From the NCBI GenBank assembly GCA_013180625.2, contig SNVD02009651.1, positions 337,329 to 401,328 on the forward strand: a stretch of 64,000 nucleotides of DNA. Reading direction: 5' to 3'. This DNA is from Boswellia sacra. Taxonomy: Eukaryota > Streptophyta > Magnoliopsida > Sapindales > Burseraceae. A program made the translations under genes and the position numbers. Position 1 is the first letter of the stretch. Each line of letters opens with the position of its first letter. Of this stretch, positions 741-53,208 are shown piece by piece. A model generated the notes under the pieces. It did not search any database. It was not told the origin of the DNA and saw only the letters and a list, made by a program, of their open reading frames with translations.

Positions 741-761
741 TAGCATTATTGACCATAAAGA

Positions 762-11738: not shown

Positions 11739-12264
11739 AGCTGGAGTCAGCGAGTTGCAGGGCTATTGGAGTCGGTAACTCGTGGGACAGCTGGAGTCGG
11801 TGAGGCTGGAGTCGGCGCTGTGTGATGTTGGAGTAGGCGAGTCACGGGGCTGCTACTGTCGGCGCAAGGCAGGGCTACTAGAGTCGGCGATTTGAGCTAC
11901 AATGAAATTGATTTGAGAAGAAACATGGAATCATAGGAGGGATTTGAGAAGAAATCGATGTGAGTAGATGATGAGTGGGTAAGGGAGTAGATGATGGCGG
12001 CTAGGGCAAAAGAAGGAATAAACAACGTGAATAAATGGGAGGGAAATAAAAAAGGGAAAGAGGGAAAATTAATATAAAGGTTTTTTTGTAACGTATATAC
12101 GTGTCACTTATTTAAAAGTGATAAATGAAATTCTTGCAAGTGACAAATAATATAAAAAAGTAGAGTTGACTTTCTAGATCAGACTATATTTCTCACTATT
12201 CTAAAAAATTGTCAAATAAAAATTTTACAAAGTGACAAATATTTAATAAATTATTGTAGTGTAT

Positions 12265-13010: not shown

Positions 13011-13207
13011 TTTTATTATGTGTTTTAAAACCAAATACGCATTTTAACAATAATTCTATAAACATGAGCAAGCCTCGCACATGAAGATATGTATGATAAA
13101 CCATTATTATTTCAACTTATTATTGATTTTAGCTATTACAACATATTATCTTCACTGAACATACAAATTTCAGTGCTTAGTTTGTTGAAGTGCAAGGTGA
13201 GTACTGC

Positions 13208-22390: not shown

Positions 22391-22395
22391 AATTT

Positions 22396-22942
22396 TGATG
22401 CAATGTGACTCAAGCCACTGCATCTCAACCAGCAACATGCTGCTGTTTTGCTGCTGTCTGCATGCTGTTTTGCTGCTGTCTGCATGCTGTTTTGCTGTTG
22501 TATGTCTGCTGTTTTTCTGCTGTCTGTCTGCAGCCGTCTTGCTGTCTATTTTTTGGTTGCTCTATTTACATTTATAGTCAGCCACCTAAAAAGGCTATTA
22601 ATACTGATGTGCAGTAAATGTAGAAAAAGCAGGTCATGTAAGTTGTATAAAACTTGAAAAATAAAGCTGAGTGAAAAGAAGCAAAAACAGAGAGCTTAGA
22701 GTGGTTCTAAGCTGAGAGTGCAGTGAGGAGAGTGTGTAATCCAAATTCTCTCTAGTGCATTCATTTCTATCCCTCCCGTGGAGTAGATCATGGATCGAAC
22801 CACGTAAATTTTGGTGTGTTCTTGTTTATGTTTCTGCACTTAAATTCAGTTTGTATGCTTGCAAGAGAGCACAGAAAATTTCCAGATTTTCTGCTTCAAG
22901 GCAACCTACTCTAGCCACAAATTATCTCCAGATTTCTTCACA
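22396..22942 (+). repeat. 5' LTR of the Tork-like copia element
   Basis: 547 bp. Near the start it has a CTG-rich run of imperfect repeats (TGCTGTTTTGCTGCTGTC type, 22439-22545). It carries CCGTGGA...GAACCACGTAAA near 22776-22808, a pairing motif also seen in the unrelated SIRE-like LTR. TSD AATTT to the left. Confidence 0.92.
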
Positions 22943-23034
22943 ACTAGTATCAGAGCTGAGGTTTAAAGATCTGAAGGTGGTTTGCCTCAAACAAATAAGG
23001 TTTCTTTGCTGAGAGAGAAGATCTTGAAGTTGTA

Positions 23035-26970: not shown

Positions 26971-27092
26971 CATGTTAACCAAACCTCTCCCAACAGAAAA
27001 ATTCAGGCTCTGTTTGAGCCTAATTGGAGTCACCAAGGTGTAATTGAAGAATTGGAGGGAGAATGCACTGATCTTGAGTCAAGGTGGAGAAT

Positions 27093-27650
27093 TGATGCAA
27101 TGTGACTCAAGCTACTGCATCTCAACCAGCAACATGCTGCTGTTTTGCTGCTGTCTGCATGCTGTTTTGCTGATGTCTGCATGCTGTTTTACTGCTGTTT
27201 TGCTGCTGTATGTCTGCTGTTTTTCTGTTGTCTGTCTGCAGCCGTCTTGCTGTCTATTTTTTGGTTGCTGTATTTACATTTATAGTCAGTCACCTAAAAA
27301 GGCTATTAATACTGATGTGCAGTAAATGTAGAAAAAGCAGGTCATGTAAGTTGTATAAAACTTGAAAAATAAAGCTGAGTGAAAAGAAGCAAAAATAGAG
27401 AGCTTAGAGTGGTTCTAAGCTGAGAGTGCAGTGAGGAGAGTGTGTAATCCAAATTCTCTCTAGTGCATTCATTTCTATCCCTCCCGTGGAGTAGATCATG
27501 GATCGAACCACGTAAATTTTGGTGTGTTCTTGTTTATGTTTCTGCACTTAAATTCAGTTTGTATGCTTGCAAGAGAGCACAGAAAATTTCCAGATTTTCT
27601 GCTTCAAGGCAACCTACTCTAGCCACAAATTATCTCCAGATTTCTTCACA
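27093..27650 (+). repeat. 3' LTR of the Tork-like copia element
   Basis: 558 bp, nearly identical to the 5' LTR apart from scattered substitutions and an extra 11-base unit in the CTG-rich run. The right flank starts with the duplicated AATTT. Confidence 0.92.
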
Positions 27651-27655
27651 AATTT

Positions 27656-28665: not shown

Positions 28666-29814
28666 TTAATTCTCTTGAATAAACATACAAATTTCATCAA
28701 ATGGGATCGGGCTGACGAGCACAGAAGCAATTCCATCTTTCACCTTGTAAGATTTGCTATAACAATCGTCATCATGTATAGAACAACTATGGTCCTCGAA
28801 AAGTTGAGAATGTGCTCAAGGAAGGGCATTGGAACCGCTGTTGGTTTCAGAAACTCTTTATTAATATCTTTTAATGCATTAGAAATATTTCCTTTGCGCA
28901 ACAATCTGATTGCTTCTTCTTCGGAAACTCTATGCTTCTTCATGTAGCAGTCCACAGCCGTGGCAACATGTTTTCTCTTTCGCTCCAACTGCAAATATAG
29001 ATATGCATAATTGAGAAAATTTTGATTTTGCTGAATGAAATTTTAGACTAATTTATAATCTTTCCCTTCTAAATTAGATTCTTATCCTCTGTCCTTCCTA
29101 GAATTTTGTTCGTCATTTTTTATCTTACTAAACCTCTGAGTCAACATTTAACTCAACTCTTCCTTTATTTATTATATTATATATTAAGTGCAAGTTGGAA
29201 AGTTTTAAGTGCAACTTGCACTGATTAATATATATATATATATATATTTTATAATATATAAATAATCATATATCAATATAAAATGTATACCTCTCTGGTT
29301 GCCATATCATCCATGAGTCTGGCAATAACTGTTGAAGCTACAAGAATCTTAGGGTAATTGGAGATCCATTCAAAGGCCTGCTAATTGCCGACCTCTCCCA
29401 TGCCAAGGAAAGAAGTTGTTGCCAGCAAGTGATACGTAGTAGTAACTAGTGAAATCTTCATATACTCCTCCACTGGTGGAACTTTGTCTTGATTGCACCA
29501 CTTGGCTTCAACAAAGTAACCCTGGACTAGTCTCTTCATCTGGTACATATATAAATATATTCAATGCAAGAGTGACTAAGTAATTATCAGGTTAAAGGTA
29601 ATGTACGTATAAATGGATTACCTATTCTATTGCATAATTCATACAATATGATCTTCCGTCCTTAGACATCTCCTCCTCAACTTCACAGTAAACTTCTACT
29701 AGAGCCTCATAAATCAGTTTCATGTATTCTGGAAGAAGATCTTTGGTGCTGATGTCCCATCTAAAAATCAAGTGAAGACAATACTCCTTATAATTAAGCC
29801 AAATTGGGAGAAAT

Positions 29815-29815
<1 letters not shown>

Positions 29816-29855
<40 letters not shown>
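29816..29855. repeat. (GA)n microsatellite in TPS copy 3 intron
   Basis: About 20 uninterrupted GA units between exons 4 and 5 of the pseudogene. Confidence 0.9.
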
Positions 29856-29859
<4 letters not shown>

Positions 29860-30010
29860 ATATTAAAGAGCTGAAAGGTACTACTGAACAGTATTTTTCG
29901 GTATTTTTCTTAAACCTGACCGATTAGTAGCGTAGGTAAGTAGTTCATGTTCTTCAAGGGTGCCATAGACATTGTACGTCTCATCTAAAATGGACACCAT
30001 AGATACTACT

Positions 30011-30413
30011 TGAAAGAAAAGATACAAAAACAAAGATTCTTTTATTTGTTTTCTTTGTGTGTTAATGGAACTGAGTACACATCTCTTTTATATAGTTCAA
30101 AATCATGTGAAAACTATTTTCCTAAATCTTCTGTAACTGTCCTAGAAATCCGGTAACAAACTATGCAAAACATGCATGCTTTGGAGCTAAGCACAGGTGA
30201 GTGACGCGGGCTGGTGTACAGGTGAGGGACTCGGGCTTTACGTAAACTTCATATGCTGCATGTGAAGGACAAGGGTTATGCTACAATGAAACACGAACCA
30301 CCTCAGCTAAGTTACATCATGTTGCTGTTGCTTTATGTGCTGCATGTGAAGGACGTGAGTTATGCTACAATGGAACCCGAACCTCCTTAGCTAAGTTACA
30401 TCATCTTGGCTAT
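30011..30413 (-). mobile_element. Solo LTR inserted in exon 4 of TPS copy 3
   Basis: A 403-bp insertion flanked by the 5-bp repeat CTACT (30006-30010 and 30414-30418). Read on the minus strand it has a TATA-like CTATATAAAAGAGATG, ends in CA, and contains an internal duplication of about 85 bp (two copies of GATGTAACTTAGCT...CACATGCAGCA). No coding or primer site is present, so it fits a solo LTR of an LTR element. The expected TG at the 5' end is not clear. Confidence 0.65.
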
Positions 30414-31113
30414 CTACTTCGGTAAGGATCCTTCTTCCTAAAGTGTATTGGGGCCTGACGTGCACTCCCACCATCCAGACATAAAGTTCTACCATTCTAT
30501 CTCTTGCATATGGCAGCTTCGTGGCAAGGTCTAAATTTTTCCACCACCTGCGACGTTGAGTCAGTTTCGGTAATAAACAACTTTCCATCAATTTAAGAGT
30601 TATATCTTTTGGCCAAACTTTCTACTAGCTAAAATAATTCTTTTAAGCTGAATTCGCTGACAAATCAGAATATGAATACTTGAACTCACTCGGTGAGGCT
30701 GCTTAGCTCCTTTTGGTGCTGCGCTTGTCCCATGTTAAAATCTAGTTTTGCAAACTTCAGTAGTTTTTTACTCTCTGGACTGTCTATCGAGTAAAATTCG
30801 ATGAAATGCCTCGTCTCCAACCTTGGTAAGCCTTTACGGAAGGGCCTGTTCAAGGCGTGAGTTATATGTTGTGCAACATGAGGACTTGAGTAACCCTTGA
30901 CTTGCTGTAAGATGCAGTGAAATCTACAGCTTCATCCAGGACATCTTCTCCACGTATGCCAAGATGTGCAGCCTCACACAGACTTAGCATGCCCGTTACA
31001 TCATTAATAAGGAGGATTTGAACTTTCCATCTTCATCTTTGAATTTGCCAAATATTTCTGCTTTACAATAAAACACTTGATGAAAATTAATATATACATT
31101 CGGGAGCATTAGT

Positions 31114-31643
31114 TGTTGTACCCCATGGAGTCCCCATTTGGATAGTCCTCATTTAGAGTCCCATATTAATTGGTTAAGGGAAGGTCATGGAGCTTATATA
31201 TGGGAGGAGTTCCTCCACCTAATAGACTAGTCTTTTGGGCTGAATACTTACTCCATATATGATAGTCAATTTGTTGAATTGTTGTGTGCGTAATGCGGAA
31301 GCGTAACAAATGGTATCAGAGCTTACCCAAGACAGCAATGTGAACTCATTTGGTTCGGGCAAGGATGGTGCCATTGTCCACCGAGACCTTGTCTTTGTAG
31401 AGGATTATCATTGGTTCAGACAAGGATGGCGTCGCCACCTGCCGGGGCCTTGTCTGAGAAGGGGGATTGTTGTACCCATGGAGTCCCCATTTGGATAGTC
31501 CTCATTTGAAGTCCCACATTGATTGGTTAAGGGAAGGTCATAGCATCTATCTAATGGACTAGCCTTTTGGGCTAGATACTTACTCCATATATGGTGACCC
31601 ATTTGTTCAATTGCATGTTGTTGCATAGTGCAGAAGCGTAACA
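31114..31643 (+). mobile_element. TRIM (terminal-repeat retrotransposon in miniature)
   Basis: LTRs at 31114-31308 (195 bp) and 31468-31643 (176 bp) start TGTTGTACCC and end GCGTAACA. They flank a 159-bp interior with a primer site TGGTATCAGAGC right after the left LTR and a purine tract GAGAAGGGGGA before the right LTR. The exact duplication TTAGT lies at 31109-31113 and 31644-31648. The interior has no coding capacity and contains an internal repeat (CAAGGATGG...CCTTGTCT twice). It sits in intron 2 of TPS copy 3. Confidence 0.92.
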
Positions 31644-31823
31644 TTAGTGAATTTCAGGCGCCATCATATCTATATATAAGGGATAACACACACACCACAT
31701 GGAACATTGTATCCTTGTTGTCTAATTAACCGAAATCTGAGAGCAGTAGTGTTCAAATTGTTGATATCATTGCAATCATCTTGATATAGCTTCTCTAGAT
31801 CATCCTCTATCTCATTCTCAAAA

Positions 31824-33707
31824 TAAGGCTACATGATAATTTTGATGATAACAATACACATTGATTCATTGAGATTTTCTAACATGTTTATTTATTTGCA
31901 AGAGTAAGATCATTGAAATAATTGTAAAATCACGAAGAGGCTTATTAAAATGAAGTGTTGAAGCTAAGGAGAAGACTACATGTTAAAGGCACCAAAGTTT
32001 AAGAACAAGGATTGACTCAAGGAATATGACACATGAGCAATATTCAATCAATTGGTCATATCTATCTCTATAAACCTCTAAATGATGTGATTCTTAAGCG
32101 TTTGGAAAGCTTACTTAATTTATAACATTTCATATGTTTTAAAGAAATTCAAATTTCAAGTGAAAGGTTGCCCAAATCATCATGCAATTTGAAAGACAAA
32201 TGGAAGCAGCTGACATGAGCACCGAATACTCTTTTGGACATATCTTGAGCTAGAAATATCAAAATTACTTGATTCTTATGGCATTAGAAATAGGACTTAA
32301 TGAGGCACATTTCATATGTTTTAATGAAATTCAAATTTCAAATGGAAAGCTGACATAATTGATATGCAATTCGGTAGACTGACACAGAAAAGAAAAATCA
32401 ACTCATATGAGCACTGAATAATGTTTTATCCATATCTTGAGCTAGAGATATCCAAATGACTTGATTCTTATGGAATTGGAAAGATGATTCAATGGATAAC
32501 ATTTCATATTCTTTGAATAAATTCAAATTGCAAATGGAAGGCTAACATAATATATATACAATTCAGTGGACTGACACAAGGAAGAAATATTAAGTCACAT
32601 GAGCACCAAATGGTGTTTTGGCCATATCTTGAGCTACAGTTATCCAAATGACTTGGTTCTTGATGCATTGGAAAGATTATTCAATTGTACAAATCTTTTA
32701 TGTTTTGCAGATTTTCAAATTTCAAACGAAATATTGACAAAAATGGCAGAAAAAATTACAGTTTTTATGGTGGGCAAAAACTTTGGAGTTAGTGTCTTCA
32801 TTTGATTAAGTTCATCCCATTTGCCTATAAAAGGAGCCCTTCTCCCATGCATTTAGCAAGAAGAAGAGAAGAATCCATCAAGCCACAAATAAGGAAAATA
32901 TCAAGTTTATAGAGCTTTTATATTCTTTATCTACTCTTTGAAGAGAGTTGTACTTTTATTATAAAAATTTTCTTTGTTCTAATATTGTGGTGAGAGTGAG
33001 ATCTTCTTGTAAAGGATAAAAGTTATCCTTGAGAGAACTCTTTCCTTGGTGAGGTTGTTCATCAAGAAGAACTCTTGGTGTGGTGTTATCAAGAGTTGAA
33101 GGAAGTTGCCTTGGTGAGGTTGTTCATCAAGAAGAACTCTTGGTGTGGTGTTATCAAGAGTTGAAGGAAGTTGCCTTGGTGAGGTTGTTCATCAAGAAGA
33201 ACTCTTGGTGTGGTGTTATCAAGAGTTGAAGGAAGTTGCCTTGGTGAGGTTGTTCATCAAGAAGAACTCTTGGTGTGGTGTTATCAAGAGTTGAAGGAAG
33301 TTGCCTTGGTGAGGTTGTTCATCAAGAAGAACTCTTGGTGTGATGTTATCAAGGGTTGAAGGAAAAAGTCTTGGTGAGGTTGTTCATCAAGCAAGTTGTA
33401 AAGATTTCTACAACTTAGTGGAAAGCTTAGCTCGTGGAGCTAGGAGCCCGTGGACGTAGGCAAGGTTTGCCGAACCACGTAAATTGAGTTTGCACTCTCT
33501 CTATCCCTATACTCTTTATATTTACTTGCACTTGTGATTGTTCATTATTGCATTCTCTTGATTGCATTCTATTTTCATCTTCTTCACCTTTATTCTCAAA
33601 GAAAGAGTTAAATAATTTTGATCTTTCAAGAAAAGTTTTCTAAATCCATTTTGATAAATAAAAACCCAATTCACCCCCCCTCTTGGGTTGCCATACCTGG
33701 GTCAACA
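31824..33707 (+). repeat. 5' LTR of the SIRE-like element, with two internal repeat arrays
   Basis: The first array (about 32060-32770) has about four degenerate units of roughly 190 bp, each holding ATGAGCACYRAAT and ATCTTGAGCTA words. The second (33040-33390) has about six units of exactly 65 bp holding GGTGAGGTTGTTCATCAAGA. A TATA box TATAAAAGGAG is at about 32826. GTGGACG...GAACCACGTAAA lies at 33447-33483. Confidence 0.85.
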
Positions 33708-33765
33708 AGTGGTATCAGAGCAAGGTTGCTCATTTTTTTTTTTAAATCTTAACCGATTTTGAGCT

Positions 33766-34646
33766 ATGGCAACTTTTAATCCAGCTTCATATGTTGAGGA
33801 GCTTTCTATCTCTAGACCTCCATTTTTCAATGGAAGTGATTACTCTTATTGGAAAACTAGAATGAGTATTTTCTTGCAATCTTTTGATTATGATTTATGG
33901 TCTATTGTTTTGGAAGGACCTTTTGTTCCTACCAAAATTGAAAATGGGAAAGCATGCTTAAAGAACCTAAAGAGTTTAGTGAAGATGATAAAAAGAAATT
34001 GAGTTTGAATGCTAAAGCTATGAATGTGTTATATTGTGCTCTAGATAGAAATGAGTTTAATAGAATATCTACTTGTTCTACGGCACAAGAAATATGGCAC
34101 ACACTTGAAGTAACTCATGAAGGAACTAGTCAAGTTAAAGAATCCAAAATTAGTATGCTAATTCATAGTTATGAGCTTTTTAAGATGAAATCGGATGAAT
34201 CAATTTCTGAAATGTTTACTAGATTTACGGATATTATTAATAGTTTGAAATCTCTTGGTAAATCTTATTCTAATGTTGAAATGGTGAGAAAGATTCTTAG
34301 GTGTCTACCAAAATCTTGGGAGCCAAAGGTGACGGCAATTCAAGAAGCAAAGGACCTCACCAAACTACCATTAGAAGAACTTATGGGTTCTCTCATAACT
34401 CATGAAATCATCTTGAAGGAGAATGAAGAAGAAGATTGCGAAGTGGCAAGCATATGCTTCATGGCTTTAAGAGAAGATGAGGTAAGTGTTCTAAACTATG
34501 ATCCTAAGCTTTCATATGATGAATTACTTGAAGCATTCCAAAATTTACATGTGCAAGTTGATAAACAAAATTCAAAAATCAATGCTTTCAAAAAGAAGTC
34601 AAAAATCATGTTATCTCAATTAGAAGAGTTGGTGGAAAATAAATGA
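33766..34646 (+). pseudogene. Gag of the SIRE-like copia element
   Basis: The frame starts MATFNPASYVEELSISRPP, with the FNGSDYSYWKTRM block typical of plant copia gag (DUF4219/UBN2 type). A frameshift near 33955 moves it to the frame ending at 34646. Further on, 34695-35072 continues in a different frame with a coiled-coil-like Lys/Asn/Glu-rich stretch and the zinc knuckle CTYCGRKGHKVYSC. No intact gag can be made. Confidence 0.85.
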
Positions 34647-35159
34647 AGCTTTAGAAAATGAAAATGAAATTTAAAGCAAAAAGATTTTGAAAGTTTGGAA
34701 AATCAAATACATTTATTAAAAACTGAAAATGAGATTTTAAAACAAAAGAATTTTGATAAATTGGAGAAACAAAATGCTATTTTGGAAAAGAAAAATAATG
34801 ACTTAAGAAATATTGTTGATAGTTTTACAAAAAACACAAAAAATTCGAACTCTATGTTACAAGATCAGAGGTGTGTTCTTGATAAAAGAGGGTTAGGATA
34901 CAAAACTCATAAAAATCAAAAGTATTTTAAAAACTATTTTGCTCATGTATCTTCTAGGAATAATCCTAATCATTCATGTACTTATTGTGGAAGAAAAGGA
35001 CACAAAGTTTATTCTTGCTATATTAAGAGAAATCCTAATTTGAAACAAATATGGGTTCCAAAAAGTACCTAACTAACCTCCAAGGACTCAAGAACATTTG
35101 GGTACCAAAAAGTCTCTCTTTAAATGTTGATTGTAGAAACGAAGGAGTGGCAAACACAA

Positions 35160-36600
35160 GTGGTATTTAGATAGAGGATGCTCAAGGCATATGACCGGAG
35201 ATACCTCCAAGTTCTCAAGATTAATCATGAAGAAAGGAAGATATGTGACATTCGGTGATAATGCCAAAGGAAGGGTAATCGGACATTGTGATATTGGTAA
35301 CCATTCTTCACCTATTATTGAATATGTTTTGCTTGTTAATGGTTTAAAACATGATTTGATTAGCATTAGTCAATTGTGTGATCAGGGATATTTTGTTGCT
35401 TTTGAGCCTAATAGATGTGTGATTAAGGATGTTAGTAACAATAAGACATTATTTGTTGGTAATAGATGTAGTAATATTTATACAATTGATATTGATGTTA
35501 ATAATTATGTAGAAAATTGTTTCATTGTTAATCATGATGCTAGGTTATGGCATAGAAGGCTAGGTCATGCTAGCATGGACACAATTTCAATAATTTCTAA
35601 AAATGATTTAGTTGATTGTCTTCCAAAAATAAAATTTCAATAGGATAAGATTTGTGATGCTTGTCAATTTGGAAAATAAGTGAGAACTTCTTTTAAACAA
35701 AAAGAAATTTATTTCAACAATACAATTACTTCATTTAGATTTATTTGAACCATCAAGAACTCAAAGCCTTGGTGGAAAGTATTATGCTTGTTATTGTGGA
35801 TGATTATTCAAGATTCACTTGGGTGTTATTCTTGAAAACTAAAAATGAGGCCACACAAGCTTTTTCAAAATTTACAAAAGAGTCCAAAATCAAAAAAGGT
35901 ATTCTATTGTGTCTATTAGAAGTGATCATGGTGGTGAAGTAGACAATGCTATATTTAAAAATTTTTGTGATGAAAATGGTTTTGAACATAATTTTTTCAC
36001 GCTTAGAACTCCACAACAAAATGGTGTTGTTGAGAAAAAAAAAATAGGACTATCCAAGAAATTGCTAAGACCATGTTACTTGAAAATAATTTGTCAAAAT
36101 ATTTTTGAGCCAAAGCCATTAATACCGTATGTTTTATAATCAATAGAGTTCATATTAGAACTTTAATTAAAAAAAAAACTCTTGCTATTGAAGAATCTAT
36201 GCATGTTTGATGAAACTAATGTGATTTCTTCAAAGAATTTAGATTATGATATTGTTGAGGTAGAAAGGCAAATCAAGGAATCAAGGCTTGATGAAAAGAG
36301 TCAAAATGAATTACAATTTCAACAAGAAAAGCTTGAGCAAGTAAATGATTCTTCCCAAGAATTACCAAAGGAATAGAGGTACACAAAAGCTCACCCTAAA
36401 GATCTCATTATTGGTGAATCTTCACAAGGTATGAGAACTAGATCTTCTTTCGGGAACTTTTGTAATCATTTTGTATTTGTCTCTCAATTTGAACCAAAAT
36501 CTTTTAAAGAAGCCGAAAATGACGAAAGTTTGATTTTGGCTATGTAAGAAGAATTGAACTAATTCGAGAGAAATCAAGTTTGGGAATTAGTCCCTAGACC
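35160..36600 (+). pseudogene. Protease-integrase remnant of the SIRE-like element
   Basis: The protease signature reads WYLDRGCSRHMTG, with Arg in place of the catalytic-loop Ser of DSG. The pre-integrase LWHRRLGHASMDT and integrase pieces (VDDYSRFTWV near 35800, RSDHGGE near 35915, TPQQNGVVEK near 36010) follow with several stops. At WELVPRPK, about 36580, where the reverse transcriptase starts, the sequence jumps to the 3' non-coding region, so reverse transcriptase and RNase H are deleted. Confidence 0.82.
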
Positions 36601-36917
36601 CAAATATGACTAAACCCCATAGTCAAGATAGATTTTGCATAATGAGAAAAGAATTAGGCATCTTGGATATGTCTTAAATTTGTTTTTATATGATAATCTT
36701 TGAATGGTAGCATATGTTAAGGGGGAGTATATATTTAGGAGGAGGAGTTAATTTGATTACATCTTTTTAATGATAACAAAAGGGGGAGAAATTGTTGGAT
36801 TGCTTATATTCATAACAAGTGCCATTTTTTTGTTTATTCTTGCTTTTATTTTCATTCTTGATTTTAGATATTATTTTAAAGCAATCAATGGTTTTTCATC
36901 ACAAAAAAGGGGGAGAT

Positions 36918-38776
36918 TGTTAGTCCTAAGGCTATATGATAATTTTGATGATAACAATACACATTGATTCACTGAGATTTTCTAACATGTTTATTTATGT
37001 GCAAGAGTAAGATCATTGAAATAATTGTAAAATCAAGAAGAATCTTATTAAAATGAAGTGATAAAGCTAAGGAGAAGACTACATGTTAAAGGCACCAAAG
37101 TTTAAGAATAAGGATTGACTCAAGGAATGTGACACATGAACAATATTCAATCGATTGGTTATATATATCTCTATAAATCTCCAAATGATGTGATTCTTAA
37201 GCCTTTGGAAAGTTTACTCAATTTATAACATTTCATATGTTTTAAAGAAATTCAAATTTCAAGTGCAAGGTTGTCCAAATCAACATGCAATTTGAAAGAC
37301 AAATGGAAGCAGCTGATATGAGCACTGAATACTCTTTTGGACATTTCTTGAGCTAGAAATATCAAAATGACTTGATTCTTATGGAACTAGAAATAGGACT
37401 TAATGAGGCACATTTCATATGTTTTAATAAAATTGAAATTTCAAATGAAAGACCGACATAATTGACATGCAATTCGGTGGACTGACACAGAGAAGAAAAA
37501 TCAACTTATATGAGCACTAAAGGATTTTTTATCCATATCTTGAGCTAGAGATATCCAAATGAATTGATTCTTATGGAATTGGAAAGACGATTCAATGAAC
37601 AACATTTTATATTCTTTGAAGAAATTTAAATTTTAAATGGAAGGCTGACATAATACACATACAAATCGGTAGACTAACACAAGGAAGAAAAATCAAGTCA
37701 CATGAGCACCGAATGGTGTTTTGGCCATATCTTAAGCTACCAATATCCAAATGACTTAATTCTTGATGCTTTCGAAAGCTTATTCAATTATGCAGATATT
37801 TTATGTTTTGCATGTTTTCAAATTTCAAACTAAACATTGACAAAAATGGCAGACAAAATTACAATTTTTATGGTGGTCAGAAAATTTGGAGTTAGTGTCT
37901 TCATTTGATTAAGTTCATCCCATTTGCCTATAAAAGGAGCCCTTCTCCCATGCATTCAGCAAGAAGAGGAGAAGAATCTATCAAGCCACAAATAAGAAAA
38001 ATATCAAGTTTATAGAGCTTTTATATTCTTTATTTACTTTTTGAAGAGAGTTGTACTTTTGTTGTAAAATTTTCTTTGTTCTAATATTTTGGTGAGAGTG
38101 AGATCTTCTTGTAAAGGATAAAAGTTATCCTTGAGAGAACTCTTTCCTTGGTGAGATTGTTCATCAAGAAGAACTCTTGGTGTGGTGTTATCAAGAGTTG
38201 AAGGAAGTTATCTTGGTGAGTTTGTTCATCAAGAAGAACTCTTGGTATGGTGTTATCAAGAGTTGAAGGAAGTTGCCTTAGTGAGTTTGTTCATCAAGAA
38301 GAACTCTTAGTATGGTGTTATCAAGAGTTGAAGGAAGTTGCCTTGGTGAGGTTGTTCATCAAGAAGAACTCTTGGTGTGGTGTTATCAAGGGTTGAAGGA
38401 ATCTTGGTGTGATGTTATCAAGGGTTGAAGGAAAAAGTCTTGGTGAGGTTGTTCATCAAGCAAGTTGTAAAGATTTCTACAACTTAGTGGAAAGCCTAGC
38501 TTATGGAGCTAGGAGTCCGTGGACGTAGGCAAGGTTTGCCGAACCACGTAAATTGAGTTTGCACTCTCTCTATCCCTATACTCTTTATATTTACTTGCAC
38601 TTGTGATTGTTCATTATTGCTATTCTCTTGATTGCATTCTATTTTCATCTTATTCACCTTTATTCTCAAAGAAAGAGTTAAATAATTTTGATCTTTCAAG
38701 AAAAGTTTTTTAAATCCGTTTTTATAAATAAAAACCCAATTCACCCCTCTCTTGGGTTGTCATACCTGGGTCAACA
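36918..38776 (+). repeat. 3' LTR of the SIRE-like element
   Basis: It begins TGTTAGTCCTAAGG and ends GGGTCAACA. It matches the 5' LTR with scattered changes and fewer, partly truncated, 65-bp repeat units (38140-38470). Exon 2 of TPS copy 3 resumes directly after it. Confidence 0.88.
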
Positions 38777-39647
38777 GGTAAGCCACTGCAAGGCGCTGAA
38801 CAGCATCAATTAATCTCAATTTATCGGAATACTTATATGTTCTTGAGATCAACATCCGCGTTACTTCTTGCTTCAGTTCATTATATTCTTGTTCAGTAGT
38901 AGCCTCGATGGTCTGGACCAGATTTTTGCAGACAAAGTAAGCAGCAGTACGTTGTAAAATAAATATAAAATTTCTTTCTTTAAATAAGCATTCATGGACA
39001 ACAAATCTAATATTTATCAGTTGCTTCTATGGATAAACAAAGAACAATATTTACAAGTTTATTTTGAATGCATGCTGGCTTTTAGATGTTGGGTGGCTTG
39101 ATTGAGATGCCTATGTAAGTGAATGTGTCCTTGGTGATGTGGAGAGTTGGATATTTAATAGAAATATATATATTGGGGAGTAAAATATAACGATTATATA
39201 TATAACTGGTCATTTGAACCAATTAAATACAAAACTAGAAGATGAAAATAATCGCATACAAATTGCTGATAGCAAATTAATAAAAAGAATTAGATGCCAC
39301 AGGTTGAGAAGCATATGAAAGGAAATGATTTCCCCAAACGGTAGGATGATAATATGCTAATTGGTGATTTATGTTTTGCTTAGCTTTTTCGGGTGTAGGG
39401 ACTACTGAAACTTGAAAAGATATTGTATATATAGATTAATGTTTAGTATGTGAGTGACAGTGCCTTCACACTCATTTCTTATATAATAGTCACACAATTG
39501 GCAACCGACAATTATGCTAGCTTAAGCGGCATGTTTTATCTCAGGCATGTTCATCATATTTAACTTCTTTTCTTATATTATTGATCAATTAAGGGTTTTG
39601 TTCATATGTCATACCACTAATTATCATTACAAGAAAATAGGCTTTTT

Positions 39648-40010
39648 ACGGCGGGCCGAAACCGCTGTAAAAAGCCTTTTATGGCGGGCACACAACGGTT
39701 TTAGCCCGCCGTACAAAATGGTGCCGTAAAAACTCATTTTTACTTTTTACTGAGTTTTTACTTTTTACTGCGGTTTTAGCCCGTCGTAAAAGGTTTTTAC
39801 CGCGATTATAATGACCGCCGTAGAAATTCGTGGTCTTGCGCAAAATTTTTACTGCGGGCAGGTGGCCTGCCATAAAAAGCTGTCGTATTATTTACAGGCT
39901 TGTGGCCCACCGTAAAAGTTGGCGTGTTATTTACCGCAGGCTTATAGCCCGTCGTAAAAAGCAAACGTAAAATTATTTACCGCGGGCTAGTGGCCCGCCG
40001 TAAAAAGTCT
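39648..40010. repeat. GC-rich subterminal repeats of CACTA-2
   Basis: About eight inverted and direct copies of a GGCGGGC/GCCCGCCGTAAAAA unit, for example ACCGCGGGCTAGTGGCCCGC at about 39981. They form short hairpins, stand out in AT-rich surroundings, and recur in fewer copies inside the right end (45600-45700). Confidence 0.75.
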
Positions 40011-41234
40011 ACTTGCAGTTCTATTGGGACAAAATTGAGAATTCATATCAAATTCAATAAGTCAAAAGTGCCCAAGGGCAACAAATAGTAATTAATTATA
40101 TACTTATCTATTTCTTCTAAGATGTAGAATAAAGAATTGAAACTCAATTGAGGAGATTAATAGTAGCATAATCTGACATCCAGAGTCAAAAGTAGTCGAA
40201 ACACACATCAAATACAATACTATCTTAGAACAATTCAGGTTCCTATAGAGATAATATAAGCTCCACCACTACAAATTCACTTGACAAGGTTTTACAACAA
40301 TCATCATAATCATAGACTTTGTGGCGAACACAGGATATAAGATAGGAACTTTCTTCATGCAAAGAAAGTAGAGGTGAGGTAAAAAGATAAGATCTCAACT
40401 ATGAACTACTATACTGCCATGACAGCTGGTCGCAATTTTCATCAACAACTCTCCTTCTTCCCACTCATGCAAACTTTTCTGTGCTGAATTTTACAGCCAA
40501 ATAAGAAGGCTGACATCTTGCTGAGGCACTCTGCTAAATTCTGTTCTTCGATTTCTCCAATGCTCTTGGAGTTGTAGACCAAGTCAAAATATACAGTTAA
40601 AAGAAAATAAAGACTCGTTCATTAATCTCAATGCAAAATGCAATCTAAACTCACATGCCAATATGACAAATTAAAAATCATTTATGAGATACTCAGCATA
40701 GGATTACTCATGTAAGATCAGAGAAACAAGGAAATATAACTAAAATATCATGTCATATTGTAGCCAAGGGAAAATCAAGATAGACACAAACAATTTCATT
40801 CAGACATTCTTCTATAAAACAAGATTCATGTGTATAAGCAGTCAAGTAATAAAAGTCAAAATATCATTTAATTCCTGCAGCCCAATTATGATGAATAAAC
40901 AGAACCTATAGCAAGTTGTAAACCTTCAATCTCCATCAAGTCAAAGGTGCGAATGACATAAAGTTTCATCCTAAAAACCTATAGGATACGAAGCCCTAAA
41001 GAACGTTGCAGATGTAAACTGCTCTATCTCCTGTCTCCTTTTTGTTTATTTATTTCCATTTTCTAATCCTTACAATAGATTGGTCATACAACCAGTTGAT
41101 TCAATATCAAAGAAAGAAAAAAGAAATTGGCCACCTGAAAAGAATAATCAGAGGGGAGCAAATTGGCCAAGCCATTCATTAAATTAAAAAAAAAAAATTT
41201 TTTTTTTTAATTAACATGTCAAAAGGATTTTCAC

Positions 41235-41363
41235 CTTGAGCGTAGGGAGAAGCCTGTCAATAAGCTCTTTAGCCTCACCGTGATACCCGGCACTTCCAAT
41301 TGCATGGTGACCAACAACGATTTTCCACTTTGCAGTTGACTCTCTCATTGCCGATTGCAGATC
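41235..41363 (-). pseudogene. Captured purple acid phosphatase exon
   Basis: The reading [20 protein letters not shown] continues [17 protein letters not shown] to a GT donor. VVGHH is the conserved metal-ligand block of plant purple acid phosphatases, and KWKIVVGHH...SAGHHG context is typical of the small plant PAP group. Only this exon is seen. It is the most 3' captured piece in the transcriptional orientation. Confidence 0.82.
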
Positions 41364-41659
41364 CTATTGTGATCATGCCATATAAAATTTGATTAAATTC
41401 TATTCAAATTAATTTGAGTTAATTCAGGAAAATGTCCTTTAAATTGATTTATTGATTTTGAAATTTCTTGATATATAGTAATTTTCTTGATAAGCACTTC
41501 GAGGCAACACCCCTCGCCAATCATAGTTATGTTTTGAGTCTATTAGCATTTTTGAAAGATTAAAGCAAAATCAGGAGAATATGAAAAAAGACGAGATGAA
41601 ATCCATGTTAAGCGCAAGAAACAAACTGGTCTTCACGATTATCAAACTAATGCTGGATG

Positions 41660-42120
41660 TAAATTACCTTTTAAGATGTCAGCAGCATTAACTTCAGCTT
41701 CCTGCACATGAACCTAAAATGGAAAGTAAAAGGTTCAAATTCAGATATGTAATTCATTAAAGAACAATATCAATAGAAAAGAAACACAATTCTGAAGTTG
41801 GCATGTCATAAGTAAAACATTCACAAGTTTAGAACTTACACGATAAAATTCTCAATGAGCTGTCCCTTCATCTCTAAAGATTATATTGAGGATGTCTATA
41901 ATGCTTTCTAGCATGTGGGAAGTGTCCATTCCCTTCTGCATCTTGTCTTCCCGAAGAAGTTCAACACCTTCCTCGATTGTATCAATGAGCTCTGAGGTAG
42001 TTTCTTGTATGATATTCAGATCAGCAAGTAGTTCCTAGATGTAAGGCCCTGGCTTAGTAAATCCCAACTCCTGGGAATTAATTGGAACTTCAGCAATTCT
42101 CTTCTCCGGCTTCAGAAGAA
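41660..42120 (-). pseudogene. Captured unrecognised gene fragment in CACTA-2
   Basis: Coding-like reading of 42120-41850: KRIAEVPINSQELGFTKPGP, then an in-frame TAG, then LADLNIIQETTSELIDTIEE and EGVELLREDKMQKGMDTSH. The composition and the lack of other stops suggest a host exon; a second piece may lie at 41690-41720 (HVQEAEVNAADILK). I could not name the parent protein. Confidence 0.5.
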
Positions 42121-42407
42121 GCGCTGCATAATACACATGACAGAGAAATATGACCATATATATTATGAAAACGATGATCATGAGAGTGCTTGAAGAAATA
42201 GAACAGAGAAACACCACATGTAAACTAATAACTACATGGAGATAAAGTTGCAATAACATCTGGATTTCAATTGGCCTGGTCTTTTCTTCCACTCATTATT
42301 TATAAAAAATAGTTTAAATTTTATTGGCATGAAAAAGAAACCGCAAAACTGTAAGATGAACAAGTGGTCCACCACAACTACCAAGAATAAAAAAGCAACC
42401 GAAAGAA

Positions 42408-42469
42408 AGAGCTTCTGGAGCAGATCCTTTCCATGACAATGCAACCGAAAATGGAAAGCACTCATTGAC
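42408..42469 (-). pseudogene. Captured Hsp110/HSP70-14-like exon piece (b)
   Basis: Reads VNECFPFSVALSWKGSAPEA after an AG acceptor. This matches the start of the substrate-binding region of plant Hsp110-type chaperones. It is colinear with, and downstream of, the piece at 43148-43287. After EA the similarity stops. Confidence 0.8.
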
Positions 42470-43147
42470 CTTCAAAATAGAGAAAAAAGAACAATGACTA
42501 ACCATTTTCACATAATTATTATCGAAGCATATTAATACAAAACAACCACCCCTAGCAACATTTAAACGGTAAAATTAATCAGGACAAGCCTCAATCTGAA
42601 ATAAAAGATAATCATTAGAATATGAGAAATATAACCTTGCGCATTGCATGATTCTAGCTTCTGAAGGATTGTAAAAGGTTGCAACTATAGTGACATATAG
42701 ATACATTATCTAGGGATATTCCAGTACCCAAGTCTTACCATTAAACATTGTGTTATTAATGGTGAATTAAGAAATCTCAAGAATATGGAAACAAATATCA
42801 ATGGAACTAAAAGCATAGCAGTTTAGCCATCCAACAAAAACATTGCCCCACAAAAAGAAATCAGAAAGAAAAATCATAAAATCTGACATTTAAAAAGCTT
42901 ATTGCCCAAAGAAAATACATACCTAGACTTCTTAACAAAAAAAGGAAGACAATAAACAATACACCACCTAGAGCTTCAATTATCTTAATAGATACCATCT
43001 AAGTCACCTCCACGGAAAAGGAAAAGTTGAATATTGTTGGCCTTACAAAGTTCAAAACAATTCCCACTCTTTAGATTGAAGCAGTATCGTCAATGGCAAT
43101 GACCAAATTGAAAACTTTGTTGCCCTAAGTCGAAGGAAAAGTTGAAA

Positions 43148-43287
43148 CATTCAATATTCAAAGGTGCCCCAGGATTGGCACTAAGAACCTTCTTCAACTT
43201 CTCACAAGCAGCCTTAAGTTGAAAGCAAGCCCGAGCATTCTGCAAAACAACAATCTTGTACTCTTCCTTGAATTTAGCAGCAAAATG
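43148..43287 (-). pseudogene. Captured Hsp110/HSP70-14-like exon piece (a)
   Basis: Reads [12 protein letters not shown] then NARACFQLKAACEKLKKVLS and ANPGAPLNIEC, a conserved stretch of the nucleotide-binding domain of Hsp110-type chaperones. It starts abruptly only about 28 bases after a PDS5 exon donor, so the two parent genes are joined within what would be a PDS5 intron. Similarity ends after IEC. Confidence 0.85.
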
Positions 43288-43315
43288 TTAGAATAAAACT
43301 TTCTAGAGAAGTTAC

Positions 43316-43463
43316 CTTCTTATCCCGAAGTCTTTCAATAGCTTCAGATAATAGTTTTGGTGGAATAAATTTCAGGTTAGACCTGGCAAGATCACAGGCA
43401 ATGATCACCGCCTCTGTCCTCACTTTATCATCAAAGTCTAAGAGTCAACTTTCAAGGGCAGCT
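43316..43463 (-). pseudogene. Captured PDS5 cohesin-regulator exon (c)
   Basis: Reads [20 protein letters not shown] then [20 protein letters not shown] and DKK before a GT donor. This matches the HEAT-repeat region of plant PDS5 sister-chromatid cohesion factors. A TGA replaces a codon in the LEGRLLDF-like start. Confidence 0.85.
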
Positions 43464-43568
43464 GCTAATTAAGTTATAAAATAAGGTTATTTGTAAATTA
43501 GATTTTCGGGGCTCAAAAATCATAAAAATGATATATTCAAGAATAAATAGAAGTCTTGAATAGCTTAC

Positions 43569-43785
43569 TGAGAATCTCCTGAGATTCCGTCCCAAATGGA
43601 TTGGCCAAGTAGCAAGCCTTAGCACATTGTAGAGCACATACTTTAACTTCAGCAGATTTGTCGGAGAACCTTTTCAAGAACTCTATCAAAAGCTCACGAT
43701 ATCTTTCTGCAACATTATTTTCTGGTAGTGCAAACAATTTTCTAATTAAGTTAACAGCTTTTATTCGGATATCAACCTGATCAAT
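43569..43785 (-). pseudogene. Captured PDS5 cohesin-regulator exon (b)
   Basis: After an AG acceptor it reads IDQVDIRIKAVNLIRKLFAL, then RYRELLIEFLKRFSDKSAEV and CAKACYLANPFGTESQEIL, to a GT donor. Open through its 217 nt. It is the best preserved captured exon in CACTA-2 and strongly PDS5-like. Confidence 0.88.
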
Positions 43786-43942
43786 CTAGATATAAATTGA
43801 AAGAGTTAGTAAATACACACATGAGAACAAATTTCAAGATAGAAAAGAAGAGCACAAATTGAGAAGAAGTAATCAAAGTCTTCATTTCATGCTAATTAAT
43901 AAGACAATACCAAAAATTGAAAACAGAAAGACTAAGCCATAC

Positions 43943-44057
43943 CAATAATTCTTGGATCAAGTTTGGGATGACAGCAACAAGCATCTGAGGAGCACACTGA
44001 AAAATTTTAAACATAATCTCATGGTAAAATTCTTTGAGCTCACTCCCTACAGAATCT
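43943..44057 (-). pseudogene. Captured PDS5 cohesin-regulator exon (a)
   Basis: Reads GSELKEFYHEIMFKIFQCAP then QMLVAVIPNLIQELL to a GT donor. The IFQCAPQMLxAVIPNLxxELL block is conserved in plant PDS5. Introns to exons b and c are retained, so the capture was at the DNA level. Confidence 0.85.
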
Positions 44058-44959
44058 CTGTCCGAAAAACAAAATGTTAAAAACCCACAACCAAATGGCT
44101 CAAGCTGTTCTGCACAACTTTGGATTATAGAAACAATAAGCTAAGAAGTAGCAAAATATGCATCCTGCTATGGAGGAAAAGAACAAAAAGGATGCATTAA
44201 ATTTCTAGACCCACAAAACAAATTCTCTAAACAAAAGAACGAGAATTCAGCTGTTACTAACTAAGCTTTTCTAAGACTAGGTTAGGCAGTGAGGTCACAT
44301 AAACGAAAAGAGATGCAAGGATTCCTTGACACAAAGAAGGCACAATCTACATCTACATTTCCAAAACTAAAAAATATAGATTGAAAATAATATAAAATGA
44401 AACATTTATTAGAGCAAAACAAAAATAAAAATGAACTTTAAATAAGTAGTATACTTTTTAAAACCAGAAAAATCAAACATTCCAGACAATTTTGAAAGAA
44501 GGGATATACATAGTATCATGATATACCAATTTCAAAACCCAGATTTTTGGCAGCACTAAAGTCAAAAATGAAGATAATCATCATTACACAAAGTGTGAAA
44601 ATAATCACTAAAATAAAATTATAAAACAATTAATTAATAAAATTTGATTAACAATTTTAACAGAAAATAAAAATCTAACATACAACAAAAGATTTATTCA
44701 TCTAGAGCCAAATAAGACGCAATTGCAAACAACACAAGATCTAGCACTGAGATATTATACAAATCAGTTACTAACATGTGGCAACATTGCAGAGTTCAAG
44801 GTGTAGGTTCCAAGTTCCAATTCTGACTTCGAATTTGACCCCAATTTCTTTTCCTCTAACCATTTTTTTGCCTCCACAACAGCTGCAATACAGAGATCAG
44901 GCGTGTCGGCATCTGAAATATAATTATAGCAGTAGTCAATTTCATAATTTGACAGCTAA

Positions 44960-45150
44960 ATTTTTAACATTTTCTTTTGTTTGGAGAATTTGTGAGAAAG
45001 CAATACCATTCCCAACTGCTCTACTAGGTTTACTTAAACCTCGATCCTCTGCATCTTCAACGATAGGGCCATCTACAACTCTTGACTTAATAATATTTGT
45101 CAGTCTATCAAACTCTTCCCTGGTCAAACATAAACACCATTCCTGACTTA
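44960..45150 (-). pseudogene. Captured unrecognised exon at the upstream end of CACTA-2
   Basis: The open reading contains NGLTLSQEWCLCLTREEFDR then LTNIIKSRVVDGPIVEDAED and SKPSRAVGNGIAF. It looks like real coding sequence of a host gene and is in the same orientation as the other captured pieces. Parent gene not recognised. Confidence 0.5.
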
Positions 45151-45735
45151 GAGTCAAACCATTTAAAAGAGAAGTAACAAAAAAATAGCCCGAGATGAAG
45201 TTAATAATATAGATTGACAGAGAGAATGAGAGATACCTATAGATGTGAGATAAAGATAGAGACGAGAGAGAGTGACTGAGACGCCAACGGAGATAGAGGC
45301 AGCGACAGCAATCGATAGAGACAGAGACAAGAGAGAGTGACTGAGATGCTGACGGAGACAGAGGCAGTGACAGCAATGGAGGCAGATCAAGATGAGAGAG
45401 AGTGACTGAGCACCGACAGAGACAGAGGTAGTGACAACGACGGAGGGAGATAGAGTCAGAGGAAGAGAATAGAGAGACAGATGAGATGAGGGATTTGGGT
45501 TGATGGGAGAGAAGTAAATTAGGGATTACGAATTAGGGAGAAAGAAATTAGACAAGAGAGAGGAGGGAAATGGAAATGTTTTTCATCGGCTTCTATTGCA
45601 GTCATTAGAGACAGCGGTAAATTTATTGTTTTTTACTGCGGGCTTATAGCCCACTGTATAGTTTATTTTTTTGCTGCATTTTTAGATGCCCGCCGTAGAT
45701 GAGTGTAGTAAAAGCCTATTTTTCTAGTAGTGTAT

Positions 45736-47189
45736 TTTTTGCCTGAAAGATGATAATTATCTTATAACTCACCATATGATCACATAATTAAATTATTTGC
45801 CTAGATAACTACGAAACCCAAAATTAGTTTACTTCATTTAAACAAATTAATCCAATCTAATTTATTAAATAATCATTATATATATATATATATCTGTGAC
45901 CTTAATTACTATATTTATGTATAGTTTATGGTAAATTGGTACTTGTACTACTCTCAAAATGGTTCTCATTGAATTGCTTTTTTGCATGTAGTGTACTTGT
46001 TGGCTTGTCTATGGAAATAAGAAAAAGAGTACTGTGAATTCAGAAAGATTTTCTAATTAACGCGAGGTTCTTGATTATTTAGTTTATAATATTTTCAATA
46101 GGAAAAATTGTGTTTTTAACATTTCTCAGGAGATTCTTTGTCTCCACAAGCTAAGTTTGGAAAGGCTTTTTTCCTTTTTTTTAAAATTTTTTTAATGAAC
46201 TTGATTCCTTTTTTCAGAACATTTAATTAAATAAGAAGTTCCCAATGGCAGGTTTGCCAGCAAGTGCTAATAATAATTTATATGAAAAAAAACATTTTAT
46301 TTTTATTCTTAAAAAAAATCAAATCTCATACTCAAAGTTCGCTTCTTCTATTAATTTTCATATTTGCTATAATTGATTTCTTTTATATTTCCACCCAATT
46401 AGACATTCAAATCAAAAAAAAATTCTAAAAAAAAAAAAGAAAAGAAAAGAGATATCTTAGATCAATAACATTAAAATAATTGTTGAGAAAACAATAATTT
46501 TTTATATACAATGAACTCATACAATCCAATATATACACATGGCATAATGTCTTTATATGAATGCTTGTTACCTCATTTATTATATCTTATTCTGTTTGTT
46601 TTTAATTTTTATCTAGCGAATGATATATTGCCATATCACATTTAATAAGTTGTAAAAATCAATTATAGATATAATATTACTAACCGTAAAAATATATAGA
46701 ATTAAAACTCTATATGATATATGATAACAAAAGCTTTATAGATACGTACATGCATACATAAATTTATCCACCATTTATTTATTTATCATTGTTGTTTTTA
46801 AGTTGTGGAGTCTAATCAATGCCTTATGCTCAATACCCTACATTGAAGCATCAAGCAGAGACATGGTAGGTATTGATATGAAGCTTCATGGATCTCTACG
46901 ATAGCATACCAAGCACCCCAGCCCTTGTCTTTAGGCGTCATAGACAGACTTGCAGATGTAAAGCCACGGTGTTGCACAATCTGAGCCACGGCATTGGTGC
47001 GAAAGGGCATATTCATAACTACAATTGTTTACCTTAGACATTATTATGTTTTGGGGAGTTATCAAAGTGATTGTGTGAAGTATTGAGAGAGATTTTGTAA
47101 TCTTGTGTGTTATGTGCTTTAATTTCTTTGCGTTATTATTATTCTTCTCAAATTAAAATAAATTAGGATGTTAAATTGGTAACAACACT
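45736..47189. other. Remainder of TPS copy 3 upstream block, no gene seen
   Basis: Pieces match the upstream blocks at 17430-18430 and 20670-21430. An open frame at 46816-47016 on the minus strand (FRTNAVAQIVQHRGFTSASL) has a coding-like look but I could not identify it. The stretch was displaced from its TPS gene by CACTA-2. Confidence 0.5.
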
Positions 47190-51744: not shown

Positions 51745-53069
51745 TGTGAAGAAGAGTGGCACACACACTTACAAGTAGCTTATTACAGAATTAATCTAGG
51801 AGATTAAGCACATACCCAAGCAAAGTAAAACAAAGAAAAACACAAAAAACACAAGGAGTTATACTAGTTTAGACCATAATATGTGATCATACGTCCAATT
51901 GCTGGTGATGATCAATCCACTATGGTAAAAAACAAAGAGGTACAAGAGTATTTATAGGGACAACTAGAAGAAGTTTAGTCTCTCACACACCCAGAAGGCT
52001 TCCAATCTCTCTAAACCCTAACCTTTTTATTTTCTCTCTTTGCAGCTCTCCTAGAACTCTCTTTTACACTAAAAAACACGTCCCATTTTTATAGTCCAAG
52101 GCTTATAGGCCATTTACTTGTGTAACAAGAAATCCTATTTTAACTAGGAAATAGTGTTACGCTCCTGCGTAACACTACTCGCCAAATGATCTGTGCCACT
52201 ATGTCAAATGATCCGTGCCGCTATGCCAACTTTCTGTTTACGTATGTCTGACGCTACATCTGATGTAGATTTTGGCATGCCTACACACTTCCAACTTTGC
52301 TCCTACACCATTTTTCTGCCTGTACTACGCAATTTGAGCCACAGACTTTCTCCACCTTGGATCAAGCTTGTGTTTCCATACTGTAAACCACCATAGTAGA
52401 TTCCAGTCACGTCCAACTTCAAGCTAAATTGTCCATCCACCACTCGTATTAAATCCGAACAAGTGTTGAACTTGACACTCGTAATAGGCTTAGTGATCAT
52501 ATCAGTCAGATTTCTTTTAGTGTGAATTTTAACTACTGAAACCTTCCCTTCAGCAATAATATCTCTGATGAAATACAGCTTGATATCTATGTGTTTGGTT
52601 CTCTCATGATACATTTGATTTTTGGTCAAATGTATTGCACTTTGGCTATCACAAAACACTTTTACCTTTTCTTGCTTCACACCAAACTCACAAACCCTTG
52701 CAGCCACAGTGCTTCTTTCACAGCCTCTGTAGCAGCAATATCTTTCACCTCAGTTGTTGAAAGAGCCACAACTAATTGCAAATTGGCTTTCTAACTAACA
52801 GTGTAACCAAACAACGTGAAAGCATAATCGGTTAACGACCTTCTTTTATCAAGGTCACCAGCAAAATCTATATCCACATATCCCCTCAGCTTCTCATCCA
52901 AGCCTTTGCTTTTCTCGTACACTAATCTATGGCTTGAAGTACCCTTGAGATTTTTGAATATCCACTTGACAGCTTCCCAATGATTTCTACCCAGATTCGC
53001 CATGAAACGACTCATCAAGCTAGTTGCATGCACGAAGTCCAATCTCGTACATACCATGGAGTGTGATGA
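51745..53069 (-). mobile_element. Copia retrotransposon 3' part with LTR
   Basis: The probable 3' LTR is 51745-52343 (starts TGTGGCTC after a purine tract GGTGGAGAAAG, has CTATAAATAC as TATA, ends TTCTTCACA). Upstream on the minus strand are RNase H pieces: MVCTRLDFVHATSLMSRFM (about 53060-53000), GYVDIDFAGDLDKRRSLTDY (about 52890) and, after a frameshift, FCDSQSAIHLTKNQ and ERTKHIDIK (52560-52660). The coding part is cut by the CACTA terminus at 53070, so the rest lies outside the window. Non-functional. Confidence 0.82.
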
Positions 53070-53208
53070 CACTACAAGAATTTTTTGCATATTTGTCACT
53101 TCATAATATTTTTATTTGGCAATTTTTTTAAAAAGTAAGAAATTTAACCATTTCTTAAAATTCAAACCTATCAATTCATCTTATTTGTCACTTTTTGTCT
53201 TTATTAAA
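53070..53208. mobile_element. CACTA terminus (CACTA-3), same family as CACTA-1
   Basis: Starts CACTACAAGAATTTTTTG and continues ATATTTGTCACTT...ATTTTTATTTGGCAATTTTTTT, which aligns with the complement of the right end of CACTA-1. It interrupts the copia RNase H region, and after 139 bp is itself interrupted by the Athila LTR. Its other end is not in the window. Confidence 0.75.

What the first reader, a model, noticed from the sequence alone, without database searches (positions are those of the whole stretch)
39625..45732. CACTA-2 has collected at least three host genes in one orientation
Inside perfect CACTA-type boundaries (inverted ends, TAT duplication) are exons of PDS5, Hsp110 and a purple acid phosphatase, plus two coding-like pieces I cannot name, all readable on the minus strand with retained introns. 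A single transcript could splice them into a chimera or feed small RNAs against the parent genes (cohesin regulation, chaperone, phosphate metabolism). The number of donors in 6 kb is high.
Basis: partly seen in the sequence, partly recalled or inferred. Interest (0 to 1): 0.82.

Follow-up and report, generated by a model that had tools for sequence, protein, structure and literature searches.

The report
CACTA transposon carrying five gene fragments
A plant jumping gene without a transposase of its own has picked up broken pieces of five ordinary host genes, all pointing the same way; it is a good example of a known kind of gene-capturing transposon, and several of the pieces already look decayed.

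Summary
At 39625-45732 lies a 6108-bp non-autonomous CACTA-type element: imperfect inverted ends (CATTACAAGAAAA / CACTACTAGAAAA), a TAT duplication, and GCCCGCCGTAAAA-type repeats crowded at both ends. Six-frame Pfam scans found no transposase. Inside are fragments of five host genes, all on the minus strand. Four internal introns keep GT-AG ends and phase, so capture was from DNA.

In-frame stops sit in PDS5, Hsp110 and RTEL1, and none of 496 ordered multi-donor exon subsets stays open over three donors; two-donor products remain possible. Transcription and small RNAs are untested. The element lies about 200 bp upstream of a broken terpene synthase, in the same orientation.

Soybean Tgm-Express1 (5.7 kb, five donors; PMC1947982) is a close precedent: new member of a known kind (Pack-CACTA). 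Host genome, parent genes and other copies could not be searched.

The parts
39622..39624 (.). target-site duplication TAT, left copy
39625..39654 (+). left terminal inverted repeat, CATTACAAGAAAATAGGCTTTTTACGGCGG
39636..40014 (.). left subterminal region: direct and inverted copies of GCCCGCCGTAAAA / TTTTACGGCGGGC
   Evidence: 16 motif copies (<=3 mismatches) in 552 bp of the two ends, 0 in 5556 bp of interior, 3 in 57892 bp of the rest of the window
41235..41363 (-). PAP17 exon, 43 codons, open
   Evidence: 77% identity to Coffea PAP17 residues 197-239
41475..41538 (-). PAP17 exon remnant (NYDWRGVLPR...), donor site not recognisable
   Evidence: Metallophos frame match covers about 41534-41220 at E 0.036; Coffea PAP17 reads EYDWRGVTPPKTYTRNVLKDLQSAL here
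41668..41713 (-). RTEL1 second exon (VHVQEAEVNAADILK)
   Evidence: assignment to RTEL1 rests on recall of plant RTEL1 plus splice sites and phase, not on a database match
41840..42123 (-). RTEL1 exon, ARCH domain, two in-frame stops (42035-42037 and 41852-41854)
   Evidence: PF23109 E 9.6e-18; 3.7e-8 and 1.2e-4 for the two halves
43144..43302 (-). Hsp110-type HSP70 fragment with an in-frame stop at 43288-43290
   Evidence: PF00012 E 7.8e-7; frame match covering 43302-43141; Hsp105/SSE1 best in PDB
43316..43461 (-). PDS5 third exon, in-frame stop at 43445-43447
   Evidence: part of the PF20168 match (joined exons) and one of two stretches; splice sites
43569..43785 (-). PDS5 second exon
   Evidence: PF20168 E 1.2e-13 in its frame
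43943..44140 (-). PDS5 first exon held
   Evidence: PF20168 best stretch of a frame scoring E 1.3e-23 together with the third exon
44772..44912 (-). KAKU4 second exon held, open
   Evidence: 73-74% identity to Pistacia proteins over the spliced pair
45007..45142 (-). KAKU4 first exon held, open; similarity is clear from about 45124 downwards, upstream limit uncertain
45249..45451 (.). about three copies of a 65-bp repeat (CT-rich on the minus strand) between the right end and KAKU4
   Evidence: families D3-D5
45629..45701 (.). right subterminal repeats
45703..45732 (-). right terminal inverted repeat, CACTACTAGAAAAATAGGCTTTTACTACAC on the minus strand
45733..45735 (.). target-site duplication TAT, right copy

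Best explanation
This is a non-autonomous Pack-CACTA transposon. Shown: CACTA-type ends with a 3-bp duplication, subterminal repeats confined to the two ends, no transposase match, and an interior with intron-containing fragments of KAKU4, PDS5, Hsp110, RTEL1 and PAP17, in that order along the minus strand. Inferred: the fragments were captured at the DNA level, probably one after another, by related elements inserting side by side and the outer ends being moved as one unit (the published model for Pack-TYPE elements). The whole was moved by a transposase supplied in trans and inserted at a TAT site about 200 bp upstream of a terpene synthase gene. The cargo has partly decayed since, so its likeliest present role is passive: it may be silenced or give aberrant transcripts, but is not a new protein-coding gene.
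For: Ends and duplication. Motif copies 16 in 552 bp of ends, 0 in 5556 bp of interior, 3 in 57892 bp elsewhere. Donor identities. Four of five internal introns have GT-AG ends and matching phase. No transposase family in six-frame Pfam scans at E <= 0.5. Capture model and multi-locus Pack-CACTA in PMC8903248 (sections 8-10 read).
Against: The left end is CATTA. No second copy in the window and no genome to search, so the ends are not shown to move as a unit. The empty site was not shown: the left flank's similarity to terpene synthase copy 2 stops 46 bp before the junction. Long stretches between fragments (40015-41234, 42124-43143, 44141-44771) are unassigned. The stepwise route is taken from work in other species.
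Confidence: 0.88

Rival explanations
1. The element is an active exon cassette: a minus-strand transcript splices captured exons together, and perhaps into the terpene synthase downstream, giving chimeric proteins.
For: All five donors read in one direction, the same as the neighbouring terpene synthase. Each of the nine exons listed has an AG before and a GT after it, though one donor is cryptic, one acceptor lies in a neighbour's intron and the first KAKU4 acceptor is uncertain. Two-donor open stretches exist, up to 167 codons (PDS5 plus 28 codons of RTEL1). Tgm-Express1 fragments are spliced as extra exons into F3H transcripts (PMC1947982, passages).
Against: In-frame stops in PDS5, Hsp110 and RTEL1; none of 496 ordered exon subsets keeps three donors open. 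The terpene synthase copy is itself broken: the place of the start codon reads ATA and a repeat-bounded insertion splits its N-terminal domain. No RNA data.
Confidence: 0.12
2. The element is a source of small RNAs that act on the five parent genes.
For: A known possibility for captured gene fragments (recalled for rice Pack-MULEs, no call here). It needs no open frame.
Against: No small-RNA data; identity to the true parents is unknown (best foreign matches are 73-77%); the inverted repeats found in the element have arms of at most 27 nt, so no long hairpin of the cargo.
Confidence: 0.1
3. The gene fragments reached this locus independently of the CACTA ends, for example as filler DNA at breaks, and the ends are a coincidental pair.
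For: Long unassigned stretches; left end CATTA; a 3-bp match is weak in A+T-rich DNA.
Against: Both ends share the same locally confined subterminal repeats and a common AGAAAA-TAGGCTTTT terminus, and enclose all five fragments.
Confidence: 0.05

Closest known systems
Tgm-Express1 (soybean wp allele; PMC1947982)
   Same: [quoted passage not shown] here 6.1 kb with five.
   Different: Other donors (unknown protein, CDC2, fructose-6-phosphate 2-kinase, malate dehydrogenase, cysteine synthase). It sits in an intron of F3H and its exons are known to be spliced; here the element is upstream of a broken terpene synthase and RNA is unknown.
Tpn1 family (Ipomoea nil; PMC5105172)
   Same: CACTA family with conserved terminal and subterminal repeats, interior replaced by host genic sequence, 3-bp A+T-rich duplications, mean length 7081 bp.
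   Different: Ends and repeats were not compared letter by letter. A Tpn1 member in DFR-B makes chimeric transcripts, untested here.
[quoted passage not shown]
   Same: CACTA ends around coding DNA, often from more than one locus in maize, where Pack-CACTA hold the most distinct loci.
   Different: That study reports 5-nt duplications for its CACTA set; here 3 bp, as in Ipomoea Tpn1 and lettuce LsC1.

Membership tests
CACTA (En/Spm) superfamily | terminal CACTA motif at both ends | tested here: inconclusive
   Right end CACTACTAGAAAA, left end CATTACAAGAAAA: one mismatch in the motif at the left
CACTA (En/Spm) superfamily | 3-bp target-site duplication | tested here: met
   TAT on both sides; 3 bp in Tpn1 and LsC1, though PMC8903248 reports 5 nt
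CACTA (En/Spm) superfamily | subterminal 10-20 bp repeats in direct and inverted orientation | tested here: met
   16 copies in 552 bp of ends, 0 in interior, 3 in the other 57892 bp
CACTA (En/Spm) superfamily | other copies with the same ends, moved by a CACTA transposase | not testable with these tools
   No second copy in the window; host genome search did not complete
Pack-CACTA | no transposase gene of its own | tested here: met
   No transposase family among Pfam matches in six read-through frames at E <= 0.5
Pack-CACTA | host coding DNA inside the ends | tested here: met
   Five donors
Pack-CACTA | parent genes elsewhere in the same genome | not testable with these tools

The most novel reading that the evidence does not exclude
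The element works as a mobile exon cassette upstream of a terpene synthase: its same-direction exons, three of five from nuclear-structure or genome-maintenance genes (KAKU4, PDS5, RTEL1), give two-donor transcripts or small RNAs that alter expression of those parent genes or of the terpene synthase cluster.
Probability: 0.05. Interest if true: 0.6.

Novelty: new member of a known kind. Interest (0 to 1): 0.27.

Why it matters
It is a clear multi-donor Pack-CACTA, close in size and donor number to the soybean element that showed captured exons can be spliced. Five donors with retained introns, all in one direction, within defined ends make it a useful case for asking whether capture is directional and whether cargo is silenced or expressed. 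It does not change the picture of the class.

Tried and rejected
Phosphatase piece: Pfam alone gave E 0.17, below cut-off, and the PDB listing was dominated by spurious matches to repeat proteins; settled. KAKU4 piece: nothing in Pfam and nothing with the first exon alone (3 candidates, none at E 0.001); found with the spliced pair. My first guess from memory was a nucleoporin, not borne out. RTEL1 piece: three PDB rows at E 0.27 to 1, no relative; settled by Pfam. The frame at 40493-40558 matched nothing in Pfam, and the piece at 42988-43089 got no match in the frame scans. Rfam at gathering scores: 0 matches in the window.

Empty site: the left flank matches the terpene synthase copy 2 region up to 46 bp from the junction. 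The right flank has weak similarity (62-74%) at 46037-46438 to 17436-18061, in the same order and strand, but also to 20868-21205 and 19973-20174, so it may be a dispersed repeat. No alignment crosses the junction.

Prior reports: the search for CACTA with KAKU4 gave 3 papers, none about such an element judging by title and start of abstract (listing only). No search was made for the other donors or their combination. Catoni 2019 (PMC6379663) is not held; known here only through PMC8903248 and PMC13317346. PMC2613891 and the other listed papers were seen as listings only.

Full report
What was checked. The finding is a 6108-bp stretch, 39625-45732, with TAT on both sides. Its ends are CATTACAAGAAAATAGGCTTTT on the left and, on the other strand, CACTACTAGAAAAATAGGCTTTT on the right: inverted repeats, but not perfect ones. 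Beside both ends lie direct and inverted copies of GCCCGCCGTAAAA. With up to three mismatches there are 16 copies in the 552 bp of the two ends, none in the 5556 bp between, and 3 in the other 57892 bp of the window. This is the layout of CACTA transposons as described in PMC8195511 (passages) and, for 3-bp duplications, PMC5105172 (passages). Six read-through frames gave no transposase family in Pfam at E <= 0.5.

What it carries, reading the minus strand from high to low coordinates. (1) KAKU4: exons 45142-45007 and 44912-44772. Of 71 candidates 5 reached E 0.001: three bear the name KAKU4 from some source (Pistacia vera, two Ricinus records), two are unnamed (Pistacia atlantica, Actinidia eriantha); identities 73, 74, 61, 61 and 52%. 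(2) PDS5: exons 44140-43943, 43785-43569, 43461-43316; PF20168 E 2.3e-50 for the joined exons; best PDB match PDS5 homolog B, E 1.6e-8. (3) Hsp110: 43302-43144; PF00012 E 7.8e-7, frame match starting at 43302; best PDB matches Hsp105 and SSE1 (3.5e-9 to 1.9e-8), then Hsp70 entries from 1.6e-5. (4) RTEL1: 42123-41840 (PF23109 E 9.6e-18) and, by recall and splice phase only, 41713-41668. (5) Purple acid phosphatase 17: 41363-41235 (77% identity to Coffea arabica, E 1.7e-13) and a remnant at 41538-41475.

Orientation. All five donors are on the minus strand. The best plus-strand Pfam match is E 0.18, although Pfam would not show a donor without a model, as KAKU4 itself demonstrates. With a coin toss for each, five alike occurs once in 16.

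Introns. Four internal introns (one in KAKU4, two in PDS5, one in RTEL1) have GT and AG ends and join exons in phase. The PAP17 intron keeps an acceptor but its donor cannot be recognised. This points to capture from genomic DNA. By the intervals exon remnants make up 1527 of 6108 bp; the rest is ends, introns and unassigned sequence.

State of the cargo. In-frame stops lie in the third PDS5 exon, near the start of the Hsp110 piece, and twice in RTEL1. The KAKU4 exons, the first two PDS5 exons and the 43-codon PAP17 exon are open. I tested all 496 ordered subsets of nine exons that draw on two or more donors. There are 232 open stretches with at least ten native-frame codons from two donors; the longest is 167 codons, PDS5 plus 28 of RTEL1; none has three donors. 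Start codons were not required and one Hsp110 donor site was my cryptic choice, so the test was generous. A chimera of all pieces is ruled out for this copy; two-donor products are not.

Where it sits. The window holds three related terpene synthase copies on the minus strand, near 1-3.4 kb, 13-16 kb and 28.7-39.5 kb; Pfam domains were tested on the second and third, the first by DNA similarity (81-83%). In copy 2 the first exon reads YTMSFQVS; in copy 3 the same place reads YTISFQVS with ATA at 39421-39423, 201 bp from the element. That M as the start is recall for this family. Copy 3 is also split within its N-terminal domain (profile 6-66 at about 38775-38963, 63-115 at about 31691-31834) by an insertion bounded by 1.9-kb direct repeats of 92% identity. 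The cargo points in the same direction as this broken gene. The empty site could not be shown.

How it most likely works. The transposase would come from an autonomous relative; a regulatory protein binding the subterminal repeats is described for the superfamily (PMC8195511, passage). For the cargo the published model is that related elements insert close together and are then mobilised by their outer ends with the DNA between (PMC8903248, sections 8-10; review PMC13317346, passages). [quoted passage not shown] I regard this copy as mostly inert; whether it is transcribed or makes small RNAs cannot be judged from DNA.

Compared with what is known. Soybean Tgm-Express1 is 5.7 kb with regions of five genes, spliced as extra exons of F3H (PMC1947982, passages including the abstract). 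Size and donor number match closely, so several donors in 6 kb is not exceptional. Differences are the donors and the insertion place. Chenopodium CACTA elements also hold gene fragments (PMC8978399, abstract and captured-fragments section).

Limits. The host genome search did not complete, so parents, copy number and age are unknown. The host is a plant, probably a eudicot by the best protein matches; the closeness to Pistacia in KAKU4 is only a weak hint at its order.

Noticed in passing
1-3363, 13009-16012, 28703-39487 (minus strand): Three terpene synthase copies in a row (Pfam tested on copies 2 and 3; copy 1 by DNA similarity). Copy 3 reads ATA at the place of the start codon and is split by an insertion.
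   Followed up: partly
31824-38779: Insertion inside the N-terminal domain of terpene synthase copy 3, bounded by direct repeats of about 1.9 kb at 92% identity and holding tandem repeats; probably an LTR retroelement.
   Followed up: partly
22395-27651: 1311-aa open frame at 23035-26970 that looks like a Copia polyprotein (by eye, no family search), between direct repeats of about 550 bp at 96.8% identity, so a fairly recent insertion.
   Followed up: no
8370-12261: Possible second CACTA element: CACTACAAGAAAA at 8370, a 3-mismatch partner end at 12249-12261, TAT outside both. Its right end is 77% similar to an inverted stretch at 53069-53193.
   Followed up: no
40015-41234, 42124-43143, 44141-44771: Long stretches inside the element with no donor assigned; a short frame at 40493-40558 looks coding-like but matched nothing in Pfam.
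   Followed up: partly
43020-43031 and 43135-43146: Short repeat GGAAAAGTTGAA at the end of the Hsp110 piece and again about 115 bp away, perhaps a trace of a template switch (seen by eye).
   Followed up: no
46037-46438: Right flank of the element is weakly similar (62-74%) to 17436-18061, which lies beyond terpene synthase copy 2, in the same order and strand; it may be part of the duplicated unit or a dispersed repeat.
   Followed up: partly
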